DNA of 64,000 bases from Parafrankia elaeagni (GTDB lineage: Bacteria; Actinomycetota; Actinomycetes; Frankiales; Frankiaceae), in the NCBI RefSeq assembly GCF_000374165.1, contig NZ_KB893717.1:124001-188000 (forward strand), read 5' to 3'. Of the stretch, positions 8,327 through 56,021 are shown piece by piece; the stretch's first letter is position 1, and every line of letters begins with the position of its first letter. The position numbers and the translations under genes were made by a program. Under the pieces are notes generated by a model. The model searched no databases and was not told where the DNA came from. It was given only the letters and a program-made list of their open reading frames with translations.

Positions 8327-8715
8327 TTGTCCCCAGGCCCTACTGCTTCGCGTTTTTTCTCTCCTGAAGAAGATCTCCTTCGTAGTAGTAGTAGGGGCTG
8401 TGGAAACTGTGGAGAACCGGCGTTCTCCCAGCTCAGGGCACCTATGGGCCTGTGCGCATCCTGGGGGCGACGATGTGGATGATCAAGGTGCTTATCCCCA
8501 GGGCTTGATCGATTCCACAGCACCCCCCCAGATGCGCACAGGCTGTGCACACGTTCATCCACCGGCTACCCACAGGCCACGAGACCACTGTTCCGCGGTT
8601 TCGGGACACGCTCGGCAGCCCGGGACGACCGGCATCGACCGACATTGACCAACATCAACCGTCTCGCACCGAGAACGGCGACTTATCCACAGTCTTCTCC
8701 ACAACCTGTGGGCAA
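8327..8715. other. oriC: oriC: chromosomal replication origin (DnaA-box cluster)
   Basis: Lies between dnaA and dnaN. Boxes matching or close to the actinobacterial TTGTCCACA/TTATCCACA consensus: 8327 TTGTCCCCA (+), 8399 GTTTCCACA (-), 8408 TTCTCCACA (-), 8474 TCATCCACA (-), 8492 TTATCCCCA (+), 8566 CTACCCACA (+), 8683 TTATCCACA (+, perfect), 8695 TTCTCCACA (+), 8707 TTGCCCACA (-). The boxes at 8399 and 8408 abut head to tail; those at 8683 and 8695 are 12 bp apart. An AT-rich segment and a TAG repeat adjoin the left group. The position, box density and synteny make the call strong; functional limits are not known. Confidence 0.93.
8351..8394. other. Candidate DNA unwinding element with DnaA-trio-like repeat
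   Basis: 8351-8380 is the most AT-rich stretch of the intergenic region (a T6 run, then GAAGAAGATCTCCTTC at 8366-8381, a 16-bp near-palindrome with one mismatch). It is followed by TAGTAGTAGTAG (8383-8394), then GGGC, then the two abutting DnaA boxes at 8399 and 8408. Read on the minus strand, the order is box, box, short GC cluster, trios, AT-rich. This is the arrangement known for basal unwinding systems, where 3'-GAT-5' trios guide DnaA onto one strand. The function is inferred from that match. Confidence 0.6.
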
Positions 8716-9477: not shown

Positions 9478-11001
9478 TCAGGCGTGGCGGGCCTGCGCGC
9501 GGATCCGGTTCGTCAGCTCGGTCACCTGGTTGTAGATCGCACGGCGCTCGGCCATCAGTCCGCGGATCTTGCGGTCGGCGTGCATGACCGTCGTGTGGTC
9601 GCGTCCGCCGAAGTGCTGGCCGATCTTCGGTAGCGAAAGATCCGTCAGTTCGCGGCAGAGGTACATCGCGATCTGGCGGGCCGTGACGAGCACCCGGCTG
9701 CGGGACGTCCCGCAGAGGTCGTCCATGGAGACCCCGAAGTACGCCGCCGTCGCGTTCATGATCGCCGCCGCGGTGATCTCGGGGTTGGCCGCGTCGGGGA
9801 TGAGGTCGCGCAGGACGATCTCGGCCAGGGTGCGGTCGACGTGGGACTTGTTGAGGCTCGCGAACGCGGCGACCCGGATCAGGGCGCCCTCGAGCTCGCG
9901 GATGTTGCGCTCGATGTGCGTGGCGATGTACTCGAGGACGTCCGGCGGCACCGGGAGCCGCTCGGTGGCCGCCTTCTTGGACAGGATCGCTATCCGCGTC
10001 TCCAGGTCCGGCGGTGTCACGTCGGTGATCAGGCCCCACTCGAACCGGCTGCGCAGCCGGTCCTCCAGCGCCGACAGCTGCTTGGGCGAGCGGTCGGAGC
10101 TGATGACGATCTGCTTCTCGGTGTCATGCAGGACGTTGAAGGTGTGGAAGAACTCCTCCTGCGTCCGCTCCTTGTTCTCCAGGAACTGGATGTCGTCCAC
10201 GAGGAGCACGTCGATGTCGCGGTAGCGGCGCTGGAAGGCGAGCTGCCGGTCGTCGCGGATCGACGCGATGAAGTCGTTGGTGAACTCCTCCATGCTGACA
10301 TACTTGATCTTGCTCTCGGGGTAGAGCCGGACCGTGTAGTGGCCGATCGCATGCAGCAGGTGGGTCTTGCCCAGGCCGGAGTCGCCGTAGATGAACAGCG
10401 GGTTGTAGGCCTTGGCCGGTGCTTCCGCCACCGCCACGGCCGCAGCGTGGGGGAACCGGTTGCTGTCCCCGATGACGAAGGTCTCGAACAGGTAGCGGGG
10501 GTTGAGCCGGGCCGGCTCGGACGGCCGGGGAGACGGGTCGCGGCCGAGGCCAGGTGACATCCGCCCGGGCGCTGGGCCGTCGACCCGGCCGTTGTCGTCC
10601 GCGGTGGTGTCGGCGCCCAGCCCGTGCCGGGGGATGTCGGACCCGGTGCCCGGCAGACTGAGCGGTCCGGTCATCGGTTCGGGGTCCGGCGTGTGCTCAA
10701 CGGTGACCGCGACCCGGATCTCCCGGCCGTAGGCCGAGGAGAGAGCGGTGGAAAGGAACGGCCGCAGCCGGGAGTCGAGCAGGTCCTTGGTGAACTCGTT
10801 CGGTGCGGCGAGCAGCGCCGTGTCCTGGACCAGACCGAGCGGCCGGGTCAGCCGCAGCCACGCACGCTGCTGTGCCGACAGCGCGCCATCCGCGACACCG
10901 GCCACAGCTTCCTCCCACACCGCCGACAGGTCCGGATCGGATGTCGGCGCGGCTCCCCGGGACGGCAGACCGGCGACGGAGTCGGCGCTGAGGTCGGTCA
11001 C
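9478..11001 (-). CDS. dnaA: Chromosomal replication initiator DnaA
   Basis: AAA+ initiator that binds DnaA boxes and opens oriC. From GTG 11001 (AAGGAG seven bases upstream) it has 507 aa: domain I (1-~95), a disordered linker (~100-165), the AAA+ module with Walker A GDSGLGKT (206-213) and Walker B LLVDDIQF (near 266-273), and domain IV ending with the DnaA-box signature [14 protein letters not shown]. The frame stays open 45 bases further upstream but that part lacks a ribosome site. It points away from rpmH, as in most actinobacteria. DnaA boxes both downstream (oriC) and upstream (11610-11630) suggest autoregulation. Confidence 0.97.
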
Positions 11002-11609: not shown

Positions 11610-11630
11610 TTCTCCACAACGTCGTCCACA
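11610..11630 (+). promoter_or_regulatory. DnaA-box pair upstream of dnaA
   Basis: TTCTCCACA (11610-11618) and TCGTCCACA (11622-11630) stand in the same orientation 12 bp apart, about 600 bp upstream of dnaA. The same 12-bp phase is seen at oriC (8683/8695). Likely part of dnaA autoregulation or an outlying part of the origin; which of the two cannot be told from sequence. Confidence 0.7.
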
Positions 11631-34100: not shown

Positions 34101-34735
34101 CCGGGCCCGCGTTCGCCGCCCCGCGGGTAGCCGTCGGACTCGCGGTCGTCGTACGGACGGTCGTCGTACGGACGGTCGTCGTGGCGATGATGACCGGCCT
34201 GGTAGTCCTCCCGCCGGCGGCCCTCGCGCGGGTGATCGTCCGGCGGGTAGGCCTCCGGGGGGTAGCTGCCACGCGGGTAGTCGACCGGCGGGCCGTCGTC
34301 GCGCTGGTAGCCGTCGTGCCGGTAGCCGTCACGCCCGTACTCGTCACGCGGCTGTTCGTAGCCGCGGTGGTCGCGAGGGTCGTGCTGGTCGCGAGGGTCG
34401 CGAGGGTCGCGAGGGTCGAACTCGTCGGCGGGACGGGGGGGCCGGTGCGGATCCGGGTCGTCCCAGGACGTCGAGGAGTCTCCGGAGGGTCGGGCCACGT
34501 TCGGACGGTAGCGGTCCAGACGCTCATCGGCATCGGGAAACGGCGGGTCTTCCGGACGGGGCCGCGCGGCGTTCCCGTAGTGCTCGTCGCCGTGGTCGGC
34601 GTACCGCTCGACGGAGTAGGGATCCCGCTCGACGGAGTAGGGGTCGCCGGCGGTGCCGCGGTCGGGGTTCCGCCCGTGCGGGCGGCCGTCCCGGCCGTCG
34701 CGGGGGGGCCGCCGAGGCCGGTCGGCCGGGGTCAC
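31157..34735 (-). CDS. murJ: Lipid II flippase MurJ with ~540-residue disordered N-terminus
   Basis: MATE-like polytopic flippase for the peptidoglycan precursor lipid II. The MVIN core begins near residue 545 (RASGTMAIGTIASRASGFLRTVAIA, then GDAYTAANTTPNILYDLLLGG) and continues through about 14 membrane segments to near 1060. In front of it lie ~540 residues rich in Asp, Arg, Tyr, Pro and Gly (DPYSVER, DPRDPRDQ, YDDRPYDDR repeats); behind it ~130 Gly/Ser/Pro-rich residues. It starts at GTG 34735, overlapping the stop of the DUF6049 gene by four bases. Core identity is firm; at 1192 aa it is about twice the usual length. Confidence 0.93.
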   Translation of the reverse strand: MTPADRPRRPPRDGRDGRPHGRNPDRGTAGDPYSVERDPYSVERYADHGDEHYGNAARPRPEDPPFPDADERLDRYRPNVARPSGDSSTSWDDPDPHRPPRPADEFDPRDPRDPRDQHDPRDHRGYEQPRDEYGRDGYRHDGYQRDDGPPVDYPRGSYPPEAYPPDDHPREGRRREDYQAGHHRHDDRPYDDRPYDDRESDGYPRGGERGPGDRHGYDGHDAARGADTPAGYERWYDDERGGSDRGGPSYDVDRHGGSRSEGHRHDAAADGRGPRRPWADDGYDQDEGYGRDLGYGYGARGEGRGRHSPDSRAGSWPADGAPPTARVPSGSAYPGGPPVPPTPPPAAPPPSPAAARRPSRDPHDSGAGRIDPYPGMPPKSYQVDEEAISGYPSGPHAPVERLAAEQTRRLPSAPAIPPPSEGGPGVRPARARTPAPGPRTPLPGGGRTPPPGGGRTPLPDEDLFEELPADDRTARLAPPAAPPPADRRLRPPAPGRPGPPRQQRPSQQQRQPQQQRPRQPSGKRPVAATKGTGTGKGAGKAGVGLGRASGTMAIGTIASRASGFLRTVAIAAAIGVASVGDAYTAANTTPNILYDLLLGGILTSAIVPVLVRASKEDPDGGDGFASSLVTLTVMVLGVAVVLGMFAAPQIIGLYIKGDEGQKALAADMLRWFMPQVLFYGVGATLGAVLNTRQSFAAPMFAPVLNNLVVILTCVVFIFAPGDRPPTVDGITDAQTYILAGGTTLGVIVMTVALLPAVRAVGFRYRPRLDLRHPGLRAAYRLAGWTLLYVVVSQLGLIVITKLATGGQVLTIYQNAYQIFQLPYAIIGVSVVTALLPRMSNHAAAGKDALVREDLSTATRMTVTAIVPSALFLLALGRPIAVAIFHHGAVGYDSAVKIGDALSAFAVALVPFSLFQVQLRAFYAYRDSRTPALVNIGVVATNVVAAVTLSQLADVEHRAVVLPLGFSLAYLIGLAATTVLLRRRLGGIDGNRIARVTTRVSVTAGIGAVLASVIAAGLRDLLGTGWLVSAVAVVVGLAVGGVVFVVVSVRSGLYEMTALMRMVGGRLGAGRRAPAGAGAGAAARPASAAGAKRPPSGRAPTGGASSGRSSSGRSSSGRPPAGGGSSGRSGSGRSGSGGSGGSGSGGSGSRGSGGSRGSGSGGPGPDRGQGRGRGGGPRGSSGGRGGPPGGRGR

Positions 34736-37389
34736 CGGCCTTCCCGTCGCCGGGGCCGGGGCCCCGAGCCGGCGGGGGCGGCCGGCCGGTCCGCGACCCA
34801 GGGCGCTGTCGGGCCGTGGTCCGGGTCACCGGGATGGTGGGGAAACCGGTCGAGGCCCGGCGGATACGGGTCCCGCTCCGGAACGCTCGGCAGGTTGCCC
34901 CGCAGCGGCAGCGTCGCCTGGTCGGTCCATCCGGGCCCGGCCCGGGACGGCTCGGGACGGCCGGCCTCGGGCCTGGGCGGCTCGGGGTGGTCAGGTGACC
35001 CTGCACCGCCGGCCAGGGCACGCCGCCGGGACCACGTGCGCAGCCGGCGGAGCTGGCGGACCACGACCGCCGCCATCAGCACGCCGACCGCGCCGACCGT
35101 GATGGTGGTCGCGATCGCGCCGTAGACCGTCGACCGGACCAGCACCCGCGCGGACGCCTCCGGGCCGAGCGTCCTGCCGTCGGCGGTCTCCAGCCGGATG
35201 TCGATCGGGAACGTGCCGGCGCTCTCCGCGTCGACCTCGATCTCGATCTGGTCCTTCTGGCCGGCGATGAGGCGGCGGGCGACCTCGGGCGCCGAGATGA
35301 GCCGCCCGCGGTCGCTGGAAACGATCTTCAGGACGACGGTGGCGTCCCACAGGGTGCTGTTCTCCAGCGTCACCGGCACCCGGCCGCGGCTGCTGGTGAG
35401 GTTCACCATCTGCGATCCGACGACCCGCACGCCGTCCCGGAACTCGGTGGCCTGACCGTCCGCCTGCTGGACCAGCGAGACCCCGGTCGGCCGGTCCGTC
35501 CGCCAGGCCGCCGACAGTCCGGTGATCAGGGTGTTCTTCATCCGGCGGGTCTGCTGGCAGTCGAGGGGGGCCGCGGGGGCCGCGGGGGTCGCCGGGCAGA
35601 AGAGCGAGGCCAGGGTCTGCACCTTGTCCCGGACCTCGCCGACGCCGTCGACGTAGTCGACCGGCAGCTCGCGCTCCCGGAGCGCCTCGGGGTAGGTCAG
35701 CCCGGCGCGCTGCCGGGTGCCGTCCAGGGCGGGGTCGGTCACCGCCTGGATGCCGACAGCGGTCGAGTAGGGGCTCTCGACGGTGCGGAGGATCTCGGCG
35801 AGCCAGCCCCGGGGGATCCGGCTCGCGTCCCGGGGCAGGGCGAGGACGACCGACCCCGGCGCCGACCGCGACACCCGCAGCCGCTCGGCGGTGATCATCG
35901 CGAGTTCGGCCTGGAACCGGGCGAGCGCCACGCCGTGGTCCGCCTCGCTGCCCTCGTAACCGGTGACGAGATCGGCAAGCCGGTGGTCGGCGGCGAGTGC
36001 GTGGACCTGCCCGCTGTCGGTGGCCAGGGTGACCCCGGCGGACGGGGTGTGGGTGACGGAGCGGGCCGCGGGCAGCAGCTCGTCGTCGACGATCACCGTG
36101 CCGGCGCCGTTGGCACTGAGCACGTTGACCGTCGGTGCGTCGGCGATCCCGTCAGCGGGGAAGGCGATGTCCCGGATGCGCTGCGGGTCGATCCCGAGGA
36201 GTTGGGCGATCACGGTCTGGCCGGTGTTGACGGAGTACTGCAGCGCGTCCAGCTGGTCGGCGTGGACGAGGGCGGGCAGGTCGACGTCTCCGTAGGGCAG
36301 GGCGAAGACGGTGCCGCCCAGGTCGGCGTACTGCCTGATCATGTCGAGGAAGACCTGGGCGTCCGGGTCGGGCCGGCCGCCCTTCGGCCCGTCCGGAGCC
36401 GCGAACTGGTACTCCTCCTGCATCAGGAGCAGGGCCTGGACGAGGGTGGGGTCGACTCCGAGCGCGACTGTCGGCGGGCCGGAGGGCAGGGCCACCGTGG
36501 CGCGGACCGCGTCGAGCAGCTCGCGGAGCCCGCCCCCCTCGGCGATCTCGGCGCGCAGGCCGTCGTCGGTGAGCAGGCCGTCCGAGCGCAGCCGCGGCGG
36601 GCTGGCCAGCGGCACCACGGTCAGGACCTGCGTCCGGGCCGTCACCTGCGGGGCGGACAGGACCATGAACGTCGTCGCCGTGGCCAACATGTCCGAGGCC
36701 CGGCCGTTGACCCTGCCGACCACTCTGATCCGCACGGGGCGCACCTCGACCCCCGCGGGGGGGACGTAGCGGGAGACGTCCGCCTCCGCGCGGAACGGGC
36801 TGCCCAGCATCGTGCCGGCCGGGTCCAGCAGCCCGCTGGCCAGCTTCCGGTACTGGACACTCTGGACCTGCTCGCCCTGGCTCAGCCGGCTCAGGTCGTC
36901 CCGGGAGCGCACGGCCGACCCCACGTCGAGGGCGATGCCGAGGTCGGTCAGCCCGTCGGTGCCCTGGACGAGCACGGAGCCGGCGACCTGAAGCTGTGGC
37001 GAGGCGGCGCTCGGGGGGTTGACCTGAGTGAGGGCGAGACGGATCGGGAGGTTCGCTCCCGGCGGCATCGTGCCTGACGGCGCCGTGCCCGGCGACGCCG
37101 TGCCGGTTGTGCCAGGAGATGTCCGGGTGACGGGCTGGATGGCCACCGGTGGGCCGGCAGCGATTCCCACAGATGAGGCTGATCCTGTGGACAAGTCTGT
37201 GGACAGTCCTGTGGAAACTGTGGATGAAGCCTGCCCGGAGCGGCCCTCCGCTCCGGCCGCGGTGCCCACGGCGCCGCCTGTTCCCACGCCCGGCCCGGTG
37301 ATCGCCATGGTACCGAGCACGGCCGCGACCGTGGCGAGGCGCGCCGCCGGCCGCCGCCGGCACCGCCGGGCCGGGAGGAATCCGCTCAC
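34732..37389 (-). CDS. DUF6049 membrane-anchored extracytoplasmic protein (Rv3909-like)
   Basis: 885 aa from GTG 37389, which overlaps the Nudix stop by four bases. Arg-rich N-terminus, hydrophobic segment ([13 protein letters not shown]) acting as signal, a disordered stretch, then a large external region and one membrane helix near the C-terminus ([22 protein letters not shown]) with a Pro-rich cytosolic tail. The location between a MutT-like gene and murJ and the general build match mycobacterial Rv3909; function unknown, presumably envelope related. The disordered codons just after the signal contain four DnaA boxes (37186-37227), encoding [15 protein letters not shown]. Confidence 0.85.
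37186..37227 (-). promoter_or_regulatory. Intragenic quartet of DnaA boxes (12-12-9 spacing)
   Basis: Minus-strand boxes at 37186 (TTGTCCACA, perfect), 37198 (CTGTCCACA), 37210 (GTTTCCACA) and 37219 (TCATCCACA), all head to tail, starts 12, 12 and 9 bp apart. They lie in a non-conserved, low-complexity coding segment of the DUF6049 gene. The same spacing recurs at 44830-44871. DnaA binding is inferred from sequence. Confidence 0.8.
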
Positions 37390-37856
37390 GAGGCGTCGGC
37401 GAGAATTGTCGGGACGCCGTCCAGCAGGCGCCGCTCGTCCGCGTAGGCCAGGCGGGCGGCGGCCTCGGGCAGGGGCACCCACGCGACCTCCGCCACCTCG
37501 ATGTCGTCGTCGGAGAGCTCACCGGACATCCGCAGCAGGAGGAAGTGGTGCACGGTCTTGTGCACCCGGGCCTGCCCGGTGACGAACCAGAAGTCGATGG
37601 TGCCCAGCGGGCCCAGCACCGCTCCCGTCACCCCGGTCTCCTCGGCGACCTCCCGGACGGCTGCCTCCTCCGTGGTCTCGTCCGCCTCGACATGCCCTTT
37701 CGGCAAGGACCACAACAGATGGCCATGGCGATCCCTACGGGCGATCAGGGCGGCGTTGGCCCTGGTGGAAACCGTATCGAGAACGAGCCCACCCGCGGAG
37801 GTCTCCTCCACCCTGCGCAGCGGCCTGCGGCCGGGCGTCCTGCGCGTGGAGGGCAT
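37386..37856 (-). CDS. Nudix hydrolase (MutT4-like)
   Basis: 156 aa. Complete Nudix box G-x5-E-x7-REVAEETGV ([23 protein letters not shown] region, about 78-100), so an active diphosphohydrolase is expected; substrate unknown. Begins [25 protein letters not shown]. The frame is open to 37922, but the extra part is not conserved-looking and neither start has a clear ribosome site. It is divergent from the CCA-adding enzyme gene and coupled to the DUF6049 gene, as mutT4 is in mycobacteria. Confidence 0.88.
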
Positions 37857-44718: not shown

Positions 44719-45444
44719 CTAGCTCTCGGGACCCGGGGAGGTGCCCGCGCCGTCGGGGCTGTCGGCGCGGATCGTCGGGTCGCCCGGGGGGCCGCCCGCC
44801 GATCCGTCCGCTGCCGAGGCTGCCTCAGCTGTGGACGAACCTGTGGACAACTCTGTGGATGATGTGGACAACAGCTGCGCCCCGGGAGGGGATGCGGGCT
44901 TCTGGGCCCGTTCCGTCTCGATCAGCTCGCTGAGCCATCTGACCTCGCGCTCCACCGATTCGAGCCCGTGGCGCTGCAGCTCGAGGGTGTAGGAGTCGAG
45001 CCGCTTCTGGGTGCGGGACAGCGCCGAACGCACCTTCTCTCCACGCTCCTCGAGCCGGCCGCGCCGCCCCTCGAGGATCCGCAGCCGCACCGCCGCGTCG
45101 GTCTTGGAGAAGAAGGCGAAGCGGACGCCGAACATCTCGTCCTCCCAGGAGGACGGCCCGCCTTCGCCGAGCAGCTCGGCGAGTTTCTCCTTGCCCTCGC
45201 CAGTGAGGGTGTAGACGACCCGGCTGCGCCCCCCGATGCGGGCGGCGGCGCCGGCGTCGTCCGCGGTCACGTACCCGGAGGCCTGCATCCGGCGCAGGCA
45301 CGGGTAGAGCGACCCGTAGCTGAAGCGGTGAAAGGAACCGAGCACGGCGGCAAGCCGCTTGCGCAGTTCGTAGCCGTGCATGGGGCTTTCCGACAGGAGC
45401 GCGAGCACCGCCAGCTCCAACATGCGCGCTCTCCTCCCGGTCAT
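44719..45444 (-). CDS. PadR-family transcriptional regulator
   Basis: 241 aa. N-terminal winged helix [24 protein letters not shown] with [22 protein letters not shown] (recognition part) and the wing [23 protein letters not shown] coiled-coil dimerisation region follows (about 120-185). The last ~50 residues are disordered and carry the [14 protein letters not shown] segment that is encoded by four DnaA boxes. ATG 45423 is a possible shorter start. Candidate operators lie just upstream (45484-45544). Same neighbourhood as mycobacterial Rv0047c next to ino1; effector unknown. Confidence 0.9.
44830..44871 (-). promoter_or_regulatory. Intragenic quartet of DnaA boxes (12-12-9 spacing), second copy
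   Basis: Minus-strand boxes at 44830 (TCGTCCACA), 44842 (TTGTCCACA, perfect), 44854 (TCATCCACA) and 44863 (TTGTCCACA, perfect), head to tail with starts 12, 12 and 9 bp apart. They lie in the disordered C-terminal codons of the PadR gene. The layout is identical to the quartet at 37186-37227 although the host genes are unrelated. Confidence 0.82.
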
Positions 45445-46366: not shown

Positions 46367-49300
46367 GTGAGCACTCCCTACAGCCAGGGCACAAGGGCGA
46401 TCGGGCCTCGTGCCGGCAACGGTGAGGACCCGCGTGGGGCCGCGCCGGGCTCGGGCGCCGAGCGGCCACGTCCCGGCGCCCCGGTGGCCGGCGGGCCGCC
46501 GCCGCCCGGTGGGCCGGTTCCCGGCGGACCGGGTGCCCGGCGAAGCCCGGGAGCCGCCAGCGCCGGCGGGCCCCCCGCGGCTGGCCGCGGCGGGCCCGGC
46601 GCAGACGAAGCCGAGGCCGGTGGCTGGACGCCCGACCGGGGCGCCGCCGCCCGCCGCCGGGAGACCGAGGCCGCCACTCGCTCCCGCTCCGGCTCCGGCC
46701 CGGACGCACGCTCCGCGCAGCGCCCCCCCGCCGGCCCGCCGGCCGGGCCCACCGGTGGCCAGGCGCCCGGCCGGCCCGGTGGCCGCCCGGCGACCCCTGA
46801 ACGAGCTGATTCCACCAGTCGCACCGGCGGCCCTGCCGGTCGCGCCGACAACCGTGTCGACAGCCGTGTCGACAGCCGTGTCGATGATCGCGCGGGCGCC
46901 CCCGCGAGGCCCGGCTCCGGTCCGGCCGGCAGGCCGGCGCCGGGCCGCGCCGCTGCCGTGGGAGCTGGGACCGGCAGCGGGATCGATGCAGGCACGGCAG
47001 GTGGCCGCGGGTACTCCGATCGCGGTGGATCCCGCCAGACCGGGGCCGGGCGGACCGGCTCGGGCCGTGTCTCCGATCCTCGCGGGCAGTTCGGGCGCGA
47101 GGACCCCGACCGGGGTGACCTGACGCGCGCAGCCACCTCCGGTCGCGGGGAACCACCCGCACCCGGCCGCGCGCCGCGTTCCGTCGCCGGCCGGGCCGCC
47201 GCCGAGCGCGCCGCCGGCCGGCCGGCGACCGTCGACGACAGCGGCGGCGGCCGGGGCGAGCGCGGCACGCGGGGCGAGCCCGAACGGAGGGACCGCACCG
47301 AGCGGCTGTCAGCCGCCACCACCCGGCTGCGGGCCGTCCGCCCGGGGGGCGGCCGTCCGTCGGCACCCGAGCAGCCGCCCGCCCGCCCCAACGCCATCTA
47401 CGACACCGTCGACCAGGCCGCGCTGAGCCGGGTCGACGTCGCCGAGCGCACCGCGGACGCCACCGTGTACCGCAAGGTCGCTCCCGGCGGCGCCACCGGG
47501 CGCTCCGGCGGCCGGGGTGGCCCAGGTGGCCTCGACGAGCTGGACGACATGGGCCGTGACGCGGGCTCCGGGTCCTCCGCCACGGCGCGGATGAACGGCG
47601 TGGACCGGGCGTCCGGCCCGCGCCGTGCGGCGCCGGGCCGGCGGCCGGGCGGTCCGCCGCGCCCCGGTGAGCGTGACCCGGGCGGGCGCACGGGGCCCCG
47701 GTCCACCTCCGCGCACGCGGCCGGCGGGCGGGTCGCGGCCGGCGGGCGCGGTGCCGCGCGCCGCACCCAGGGCCGGCGCGGCCCGAAGTGGTGGCGCAAC
47801 CGGCCGCGGTGGTTCCGCCGCCTGGTGCTCATCGGCCTGACATCGGGGTCGCTGCTGTTCGTCGCCGGCATCGCGGTGATCTACGCGGCCACCCGGGTGC
47901 CGCTGCCCGAGGAGGTCAAGACCGACCAGACGTCGATCATCGCCTGGGCGGGCGGCGGTGAGATCACCCGGATCGGCACGGTGAACCGCACCGACGTCCC
48001 GCTCTCGCAGGTGTCGAAGGACGTCCAGCACGCGGTGCTGGCCGCGGAGAACTACAACTTCTACAACGAGCCCGGTATCTCGCCGAAGGGCATCGCCCGC
48101 GCCATGTGGGTGAACGTCACCGGCGGTGAGATCTCCCAGGGTGGCTCGACGATCACCCAGCAGTACGCGAAGAACGCCTACCTGACGCAGGACCGCACGT
48201 TCACCCGGAAGATGCGGGAGATCGTGCTCGCGATCAAGCTGGACCGGAAGTACTCCAAGGACCAGATCCTGGAGTACTACCTGAACACGATCTACTTCGG
48301 GCGCAACTCGTACGGCATCGAGGCCGCGGCGAAGAGCTACTTCGACAAGCCCGCCGCCCAGCTCACCGCCGGTGAGGGCGCGGTGATCGCCGGCCTCATC
48401 CGGTCGCCGAACTACCTGGACCCCAAGGAGAACCCGGGGCCCGCGGAGTCGCGGTGGAAGGACGTCGTCGCCACGATGGTCGCCCAGGGCTGGGCCCCGG
48501 CATCGCTGGCGAACGAGAAGCCGCCGCCCGTCCTGGACAAGGACGAAAGCGGTGGCTACAACTCCTCCGATCAGGTCGGCTACATCCGTGACCAGGTGAA
48601 GGAGGAACTGGACGCCGCCGGGATCACCGAGGACCAGATCAACCGCGGCGGGCTGCGCATCACCACCACCCTCGACGAGGGCCGGCAGACCGCGGCCTTC
48701 CAGGCTGTCAACGGCCAGATCGCGGAGGCCTACGCGGCCGTGCCCGATCTGCGTACCGGACTGGTCGCGCTGAAACCGGGCACCGGCGAGGTACTGGCCT
48801 GGTACGGCGGCTCCCTGTACGGCAAGGGCGACAACGGTCAGGAACAGTTCGAGGACAACGTGTCCCAGGCGGAGGTTCCACCCGGATCGACGTTCAAGAC
48901 CGTCACCCTGGTGACCGCGCTGAAGGAGGGCATCAGCCTGAGGTCGACCTACGAGGCTCCGGCCGAGATGACCATCGGTGACTACCAGTTCGGCAACGAC
49001 GAGAGCGAGCCCGGCCATCTGGGCTGGCCGGATCTGGTCGAGGCCACCGCGGAGTCGATCAACACGGTGTACGTGCCGCTGGGTGTCGATGTCGGGGTCA
49101 ACGACATCATCCAGACCGCCCGCGACATGGGCGTCGACGAGGACACTCGCCTCGATGATGTCGCCGGTGTCACCCTGGGCCAGGACGGCGTCTCCGCCCT
49201 GGACATGACGCAGGTCTACAGCACTCTGGCCAGCGGCGGTTACCGGTCCACCCCGCACATCGTCGCCCGGGTGGAGGACAGTTCAGGCGATGACATCCTG

Positions 49301-55867: not shown

Positions 55868-56021
55868 TCGTCCACAGGCAGAGCCGCGCCAGCGGCCGGC
55901 AAGGACTGCGGATCCGGTTCCCACCGCCCTGCGTGTCCACAGTCACGCCGGGTTCCGTCCCAAGGCATTCCCCAGAACCTGGCCGGTTACCAACAGGTTG
56001 TCCACAGGGGGCTGTGGACAA
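55868..56021. promoter_or_regulatory. DnaA boxes upstream of dnaB, with a perfect inverted pair
   Basis: TTGTCCACA at 55998-56006 (+) and at 56013-56021 (-) form a 24-bp dyad with 10-bp arms and a GGGG loop. Weaker boxes TCGTCCACA (55868) and GTGTCCACA (55933) lie upstream. The 818-bp region between rplI and dnaB has no gene I can support, so the pair is intergenic, ~270 bp before the dnaB start. Suggests DnaA control of dnaB. Confidence 0.72.

What the first reader, a model, noticed from the sequence alone, without database searches (positions are those of the whole stretch)
44830..44871. Second DnaA-box quartet with identical geometry in an unrelated gene (PadR tail)
Box starts are again 12, 12 and 9 bp apart, all in the same orientation, with two perfect TTGTCCACA. 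The host gene is unrelated and the segment is again disordered protein ([14 protein letters not shown]). Two independent occurrences of the same four-box layout 7.6 kb apart suggest a defined DNA module inserted or selected in tolerant coding regions.
Basis: partly seen in the sequence, partly recalled or inferred. Interest (0 to 1): 0.75.

Follow-up and report, generated by a model that had tools for sequence, protein, structure and literature searches.

The report
Coding-embedded DnaA-box arrays near oriC
Two unrelated genes near the replication origin of a Frankia-type bacterium each carry the same precisely spaced row of four probable binding sites for the replication starter protein DnaA, written inside their protein code and kept in related genera, probably to help tune the start of chromosome copying.

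Summary
Four same-strand boxes start at 44830, 44842, 44854 and 44863 (12-12-9); the same layout recurs at 37186-37227. These are the only two hits in the 7.59-Mb genome at up to 3 mismatches. The exact layout occurs in 27 of 394 class genomes, all in the window's family (27 of its 36 drawn, 0 of 358 others); the reversed-pattern control gave 0.

The boxes are kept where the protein is not. All 8 array Ser-Thr pairs use TCC-ACA, against 5 of 331 others on the contig. Within the genus, 1 of 26 array codon columns varies synonymously, against 60 of 150 upstream in padR.

The spacings 12 and 9 bp are also the commonest tandem spacings around oriC/dnaA in 10 family genomes (26 of 33 close same-strand pairs). 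Recognisable arrays lie about 20-36 kb from dnaA.

I read them as DnaA-binding arrays under DNA-level selection, most likely oriC-proximal titration sites like those reported in S. coelicolor and B. subtilis, but with a fixed four-box geometry inside coding sequence. Arrays are lost in some relatives. Binding and function are inferred, not shown.

The parts
44830..44871 (-). Array A: four DnaA boxes (TTGTCCACA, TCATCCACA, TTGTCCACA, TCGTCCACA in gene direction; spacing 9-12-12) in the 3' part of padR
44863..44871 (-). Box A1 TTGTCCACA
44854..44862 (-). Box A2 TCATCCACA
44842..44850 (-). Box A3 TTGTCCACA
44830..44838 (-). Box A4 TCGTCCACA
37186..37227 (-). Array B: four DnaA boxes (TCATCCACA, GTTTCCACA, CTGTCCACA, TTGTCCACA in gene direction; spacing 9-12-12) in the DUF6049 gene, N-terminal to the Pfam match
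44719..45444 (-). padR, host gene of array A
34732..37482 (-). DUF6049 gene, host gene of array B (start codon as called by the ORF list, not checked)
8399..8703 (.). presumed oriC box region on the 3' side of dnaA: 9-bp same-strand doublet (8399/8408, minus) and 12-bp doublet (8683/8695, plus); dnaN not checked
11610..11630 (+). 12-bp tandem box pair upstream of dnaA
9478..11001 (-). dnaA, the presumed binding protein

Best explanation
Arrays A and B are DnaA-binding arrays written into the codons of two otherwise unrelated genes on one side of oriC, about 34 and 26 kb from dnaA in the window. DnaA (inferred) binds the four head-to-tail boxes side by side, using the same 9- and 12-bp steps that occur around oriC and dnaA. 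Because they lie close to oriC they double soon after initiation (inferred from position); the most likely role is to take up free DnaA then and so damp re-initiation (titration, like datA or the S. coelicolor and B. subtilis clusters). Shown here: sequence, geometry, codon-level and cross-genus conservation, oriC proximity, match to oriC spacings. Inferred: DnaA binding, cooperativity, titration.
For: TTGTCCACA is listed as the high-affinity DnaA box of S. coelicolor and M. tuberculosis (PMC4285127, passages). The window DnaA's DNA-binding domain aligns over 97 residues with the M. tuberculosis DnaA domain of 3pvp/3pvv, E 6.7e-33.

Geometry: in oriC/dnaA regions of 10 family genomes, same-strand box pairs within 30 bp are 12 bp (21 of 33) or 9 bp (5 of 33) apart. 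On contig C48 without the two arrays, 5 of 8 such pairs within 40 bp are 12 or 9 bp apart.

Selection on DNA: 8 of 8 array Ser-Thr pairs are TCC-ACA against 5 of 331 others on the contig. 1 of 26 array codon columns varies synonymously against 60 of 150 in upstream padR, p 1.1e-4. In the 7 genus genomes 0 of 24 core positions vary in either array.

Age: the exact quartet is present in 7 of 7 g1 (twice each), 11 of 13 g5, 8 of 8 g6 and 1 of 5 g2 genomes drawn, although the aligned parts of g6 and g2 DUF6049 proteins are only 34-41% identical to the window's.

Position: strong boxes TTRTCCACA within 100 kb of the dnaA end of the record: 23 of 47 (G010), 14 of 40 (G014), 9 of 33 (G011); expected 1.3, 1.5, 0.7. 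These counts include the oriC boxes themselves.
Against: No binding or replication data exist for these sites here. Only two of the four array-A boxes and one of the four array-B boxes are the perfect TTGTCCACA. Arrays are dispensable in evolution: array A is absent from the 5 g6 padR loci read; array B has lost box 2 in 4 of 5 g5 genomes and all boxes in G014; 9 of 36 family genomes drawn have no exact quartet, including two g5 genomes, and L086 (Frankia sp. AiPa1) shows neither quartet intact. The reversed TTRTCCACA control is not small (17, 19 and 14 against 47, 40 and 33), so part of the strong boxes far from oriC is background. [quoted passage not shown] subtilis although deleting all six gave early initiation (PMC5295017, passages). 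Titration does not demand a fixed 9-12-12 geometry.
Confidence: 0.65

Rival explanations
1. DnaA binds the arrays as a transcription factor or road-block, tuning padR, ino1 or DUF6049 expression in step with replication.
For: DnaA acts as a transcription factor at some sites in B. subtilis (PMC4447404, start of abstract in a listing). Array A lies 246-384 bp upstream of ino1 in the 10 genomes measured.
Against: The two arrays sit in different places of their genes (3' part of padR; N-terminal part of DUF6049), and the distance of array A to ino1 varies by 138 bp. The 5 g6 genomes keep padR and ino1 without array A.
Confidence: 0.14
2. The arrays are nucleotide-exchange or hydrolysis elements (DARS- or datA-like) where a DnaA oligomer of fixed geometry changes its ATP/ADP state, rather than passive sinks.
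For: The fixed 9-12-12 geometry is kept over genera and in two places, as a structured complex would need.
Against: No partner site (IHF or similar) was looked for; the geometry of datA or DARS was not compared here.
Confidence: 0.12
3. Another DNA-binding protein with a TGTGGA-type site is the real ligand.
For: Binding by DnaA was not tested; the first three bases of several boxes are weak matches.
Against: The same core with the same two spacings is found around oriC and dnaA, and strong boxes concentrate around dnaA.
Confidence: 0.06
4. By-product of Ser-Thr-rich protein; the DNA pattern has no role.
For: Both arrays encode Ser-Thr repeats in the same frame, outside the Pfam matches.
Against: 119 of 122 Ser-Thr positions in 33 hand-picked arrays are TCC-ACA; the 4 other Ser-Thr-rich rows on the contig contain no TCC-ACA. 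Amino acids between boxes change while TCCACA stays.
Confidence: 0.03

Closest known systems
Streptomyces coelicolor DnaA-box clusters near oriC (Smulczyk-Krawczyszyn 2006; cluster names D78, H69, H24 recalled)
   Different: The original paper is not held, so its geometry was not compared. In 65 loci outside the family (+/- up to 10 kb around padR, many Streptomyces) no such array was seen.
Bacillus subtilis oriC-proximal DnaA-box clusters (Okumura 2012)
   Same: Box clusters outside oriC; deletion of all six gave early initiation, strong only when all six were gone (PMC5295017, passage).
   Different: Their geometry and coding or non-coding context were not compared (paper not held). Here two clusters share an exact four-box layout inside coding sequence.
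Escherichia coli datA and the accumulation of DnaA boxes near oriC
   Same: oriC-near excess of boxes, read as favouring titration (PMC12371093, abstract and passages).
   Different: datA is described there as non-coding with five boxes; no IHF-type partner site was examined here.

Membership tests
Actinobacterial DnaA box | Match to TTGTCCACA | tested here: met
   Three perfect boxes in the two arrays, all eight with core TCCACA; consensus from PMC4285127 (passages)
Actinobacterial DnaA box | Bound by the host's DnaA | not testable with these tools
   Only indirect: DNA-binding domain similar to 3pvp, spacings as around oriC
oriC-proximal DnaA-box cluster (S. coelicolor / B. subtilis / datA type) | Several boxes clustered outside oriC | tested here: met
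   Four boxes in 42 bp, twice
oriC-proximal DnaA-box cluster (S. coelicolor / B. subtilis / datA type) | Close to oriC, position kept in relatives | tested here: met
   About 20-36 kb from dnaA in the window and 9 relatives (hand calculation)
oriC-proximal DnaA-box cluster (S. coelicolor / B. subtilis / datA type) | Removal raises initiation frequency | not testable with these tools
   Needs a mutant
datA / DARS | Partner-protein site and effect on the DnaA nucleotide state | not tested
   No search for IHF/Fis-type sites was made

The most novel reading that the evidence does not exclude
The 9-12-12 quartet is a specific family-level device, two copies of which sit in codons of unrelated genes: a template for a DnaA oligomer of defined size and register that sets initiation timing (a switch or gauge, not a passive sink), with the host proteins evolving around it.
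Probability: 0.25. Interest if true: 0.8.

Novelty: new variant of a known kind. Interest (0 to 1): 0.62.

Why it matters
It is a clear case of a probable DnaA-box array held by selection on codons across genera, with a geometry so exact that it can be searched for, and recoded with little or no change to the protein. That makes it directly testable whether box number or box geometry matters for initiation control. A search of the held library for Frankia together with DnaA box returned one paper, an Actinoplanes genome whose passages mention the two separately, so I found no earlier description there; other libraries were not searched.

Tried and rejected
Protein-repeat origin: rejected by codon evidence. 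Chance: rejected by the genome-wide and class-wide scans. Mobile insertion: nothing seen for it by eye in the aligned segments, not formally tested. Common descent of arrays A and B by duplication: left open. Orientation: arrays A, B and the third array C point toward oriC, but three cases with fixed gene order say little; TCCACA on the whole contig shows no strong bias (left of oriC 32 vs 25, right 41 vs 41). Searching the DUF6049 protein over whole genomes: failed twice; replaced by local tblastn on fetched regions.

Caveats on counts. Genomes are related, so counts across them are not independent. The 119 of 122 figure uses 21 DUF6049 and 12 padR arrays that I located by their boxes (one remnant, in G014, by likeness); for padR it holds 7 g1 and 5 g5 genomes, and the 5 g6 and 5 g2 genomes were left out (g6: no array; g2: 1-2 boxes at most, L015, L017, L019, L022, L023). 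Of the 34 places, 30 were assigned to array A (17) or B (13) by gene matches; 4 (G250, G298, G328, G349) were not checked. Codon usage rests on 174 ORFs chosen by a GC rule. Distances to dnaA were worked out by hand from call coordinates. The list was cut ('more matches are not listed'). One search kept the best 80 of 536 relatives.

Full report
Setting. The window lies in contig C48 (366 kb) of a 7.59-Mb genome in 135 contigs. dnaA (minus strand, 9478-11001) and, on its 3' side, a presumed oriC box region (about 8399-8703) are in the window (dnaN was not checked).

Observation. The padR tail holds four same-strand boxes at 44830, 44842, 44854 and 44863, two of them perfect TTGTCCACA. The quartet at 37186-37227 in a DUF6049 gene has the same spacing. 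The quartet pattern with up to 3 mismatches has 2 hits in the genome, both these. Three cores with short gaps give 11 rows genome-wide against 2 for the reversed control, several of them overlapping or low-complexity. The strong box TTRTCCACA occurs 45 times (reversed control 18); 13 are on C48, which is 4.8% of the genome (P 1.3e-7).

How wide. With four exact TCCACA cores at 12-12-9, 27 of 394 class genomes have the layout, at 34 places, reversed control 0. All 27 are among the 36 family genomes drawn: g1 7 of 7 (two places each), g5 11 of 13, g6 8 of 8, g2 1 of 5, g3, g4 and g7 0 of 3; 0 of the 358 other genomes. Of the 34 places, 30 were placed: 17 in padR and 13 in the DUF6049 gene; 4 were not checked. 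A PadR match was found in 41 of 41 genomes, but in 3 (G012, G026, G038) only a weak one (E 1e-6 to 1e-9), probably not the ortholog. The 7 padR loci from outside the family that were read from that call (L025, L027-L032) hold at most one TCCACA each in about 3.5 kb or less.

DNA-level selection. On C48, 339 Ser-Thr pairs were counted in 174 ORFs; 13 are TCC-ACA, and 8 of these are the array boxes (Fisher 3e-13; post hoc, since the arrays were found by their boxes). ACA is 4.8% of Thr codons and TTG 2.1% of Leu codons. Resampling synonymous codons gave four TCCACA in 0 of 20,000 draws for either gene. Across the 7 genus genomes 0 of 24 core positions vary in either array; changes are 1 of 12 leading positions in A and 2 of 6 spacer positions in B. 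Synonymous variation touches 1 of 26 single-residue array codon columns against 60 of 150 in upstream padR (p 1.1e-4). Across genera residues between boxes change (pad[15 protein letters not shown] in g1, LSTASTGLSTAPST in g5; DUF6049 [14 protein letters not shown] in g1, SSTVSTSLSTGLST in g6) while the cores and the 9-12-12 order stay, although aligned parts of DUF6049 proteins of g6 and g2 are only 34-41% identical to the window's.

Loss and decay. In the aligned set array B is intact in 13 of 21 genomes and array A in 11 of 12. Array B has lost box 2 in four g5 genomes, one or two boxes in three of four g2 genomes, and all four in G014, where a remnant remains. Array A is absent from the 5 g6 padR loci read, and g2 padR tails keep at most two boxes. 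The g1, g5 and g6 genomes read closely keep at least one intact quartet except G014; G275 (g5) has none, and the named record L086 (Frankia sp. AiPa1) has three boxes of A and two of B.

Link to DnaA. TTGTCCACA is the listed high-affinity box in S. coelicolor and M. tuberculosis (PMC4285127, passages). The window DnaA's DNA-binding domain matches the M. tuberculosis domain of 3pvp/3pvv. In the oriC/dnaA regions of 10 family genomes, close same-strand pairs are 12 bp (21 of 33) or 9 bp (5 of 33) apart, the two steps of the quartet. The oriC doublet in which GTTTCCACA follows its neighbour by 9 bp resembles the first two boxes of array B. On C48 outside the arrays, 5 of 8 same-strand pairs within 40 bp have these spacings. 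In the 65 outside loci, which are padR surroundings and not oriC regions, there are 3 same-strand pairs within 30 bp among 463 boxes.

Position. Array A is about 34 kb and array B about 26 kb from dnaA in the window; in G003, G005, G010, G011, G013, G014, G015, G018 and G019 the recognisable arrays lie about 20-36 kb from the dnaA match (hand calculation). Strong boxes concentrate within 100 kb of the dnaA end in three one-contig genomes (23 of 47, 14 of 40, 9 of 33), with reversed controls of 17, 19 and 14 over the whole genomes.

Mechanism. DnaA binding is an inference that I hold at about 0.9. The role is less certain. oriC proximity, no fixed relation to promoters, and the statement that box clusters near oriC in S. 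coelicolor and B. subtilis can repress untimely initiation (PMC4585315, passage; [quoted passage not shown] subtilis) favour titration. E. coli likewise accumulates boxes toward oriC (PMC12371093, abstract and passages). The exact geometry, kept twice, leaves room for a more specific device (novel case).

Literature. A search for Frankia with DnaA box found one paper, an Actinoplanes genome; its passages mention the two separately. The S. coelicolor and B. subtilis originals are not held and are cited second-hand.

Noticed in passing
G000 C48:120490-120522 (3.5 kb left of the window): Third array (C): three same-strand boxes 12-12 bp apart, between two gene calls, on the other side of oriC; similar triplets in 6 of 7 genomes of the genus, not in G004.
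   Followed up: partly
G000 C45:63969-64006 (in L079): Four same-strand boxes 11-11-10 bp apart in a stretch without a good gene call; like arrays in all 7 genus genomes.
   Followed up: partly
window 55868-56021: Three boxes exactly 65 bp apart (55868, 55933, 55998) and an inverted pair of perfect boxes at 55998/56013. In G010 four strong boxes about 46 bp apart lie about 65 kb from the record end.
   Followed up: no
dnaA gene of G010 (L166 667/679), G014 (L168 278/290), G013 (L167 1282/1294), G019 (L165 1240/1252): A 12-bp tandem box pair lies inside the dnaA gene (by match in G010 and G014; by distance only in G013 and G019).
   Followed up: no
window about 46838-46895 (penicillin-binding-protein-like ORF): Short tandem repeat in the N-terminal part, inferred from ORF translations (VDSRVDSRVDD); the DNA was not read.
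   Followed up: no
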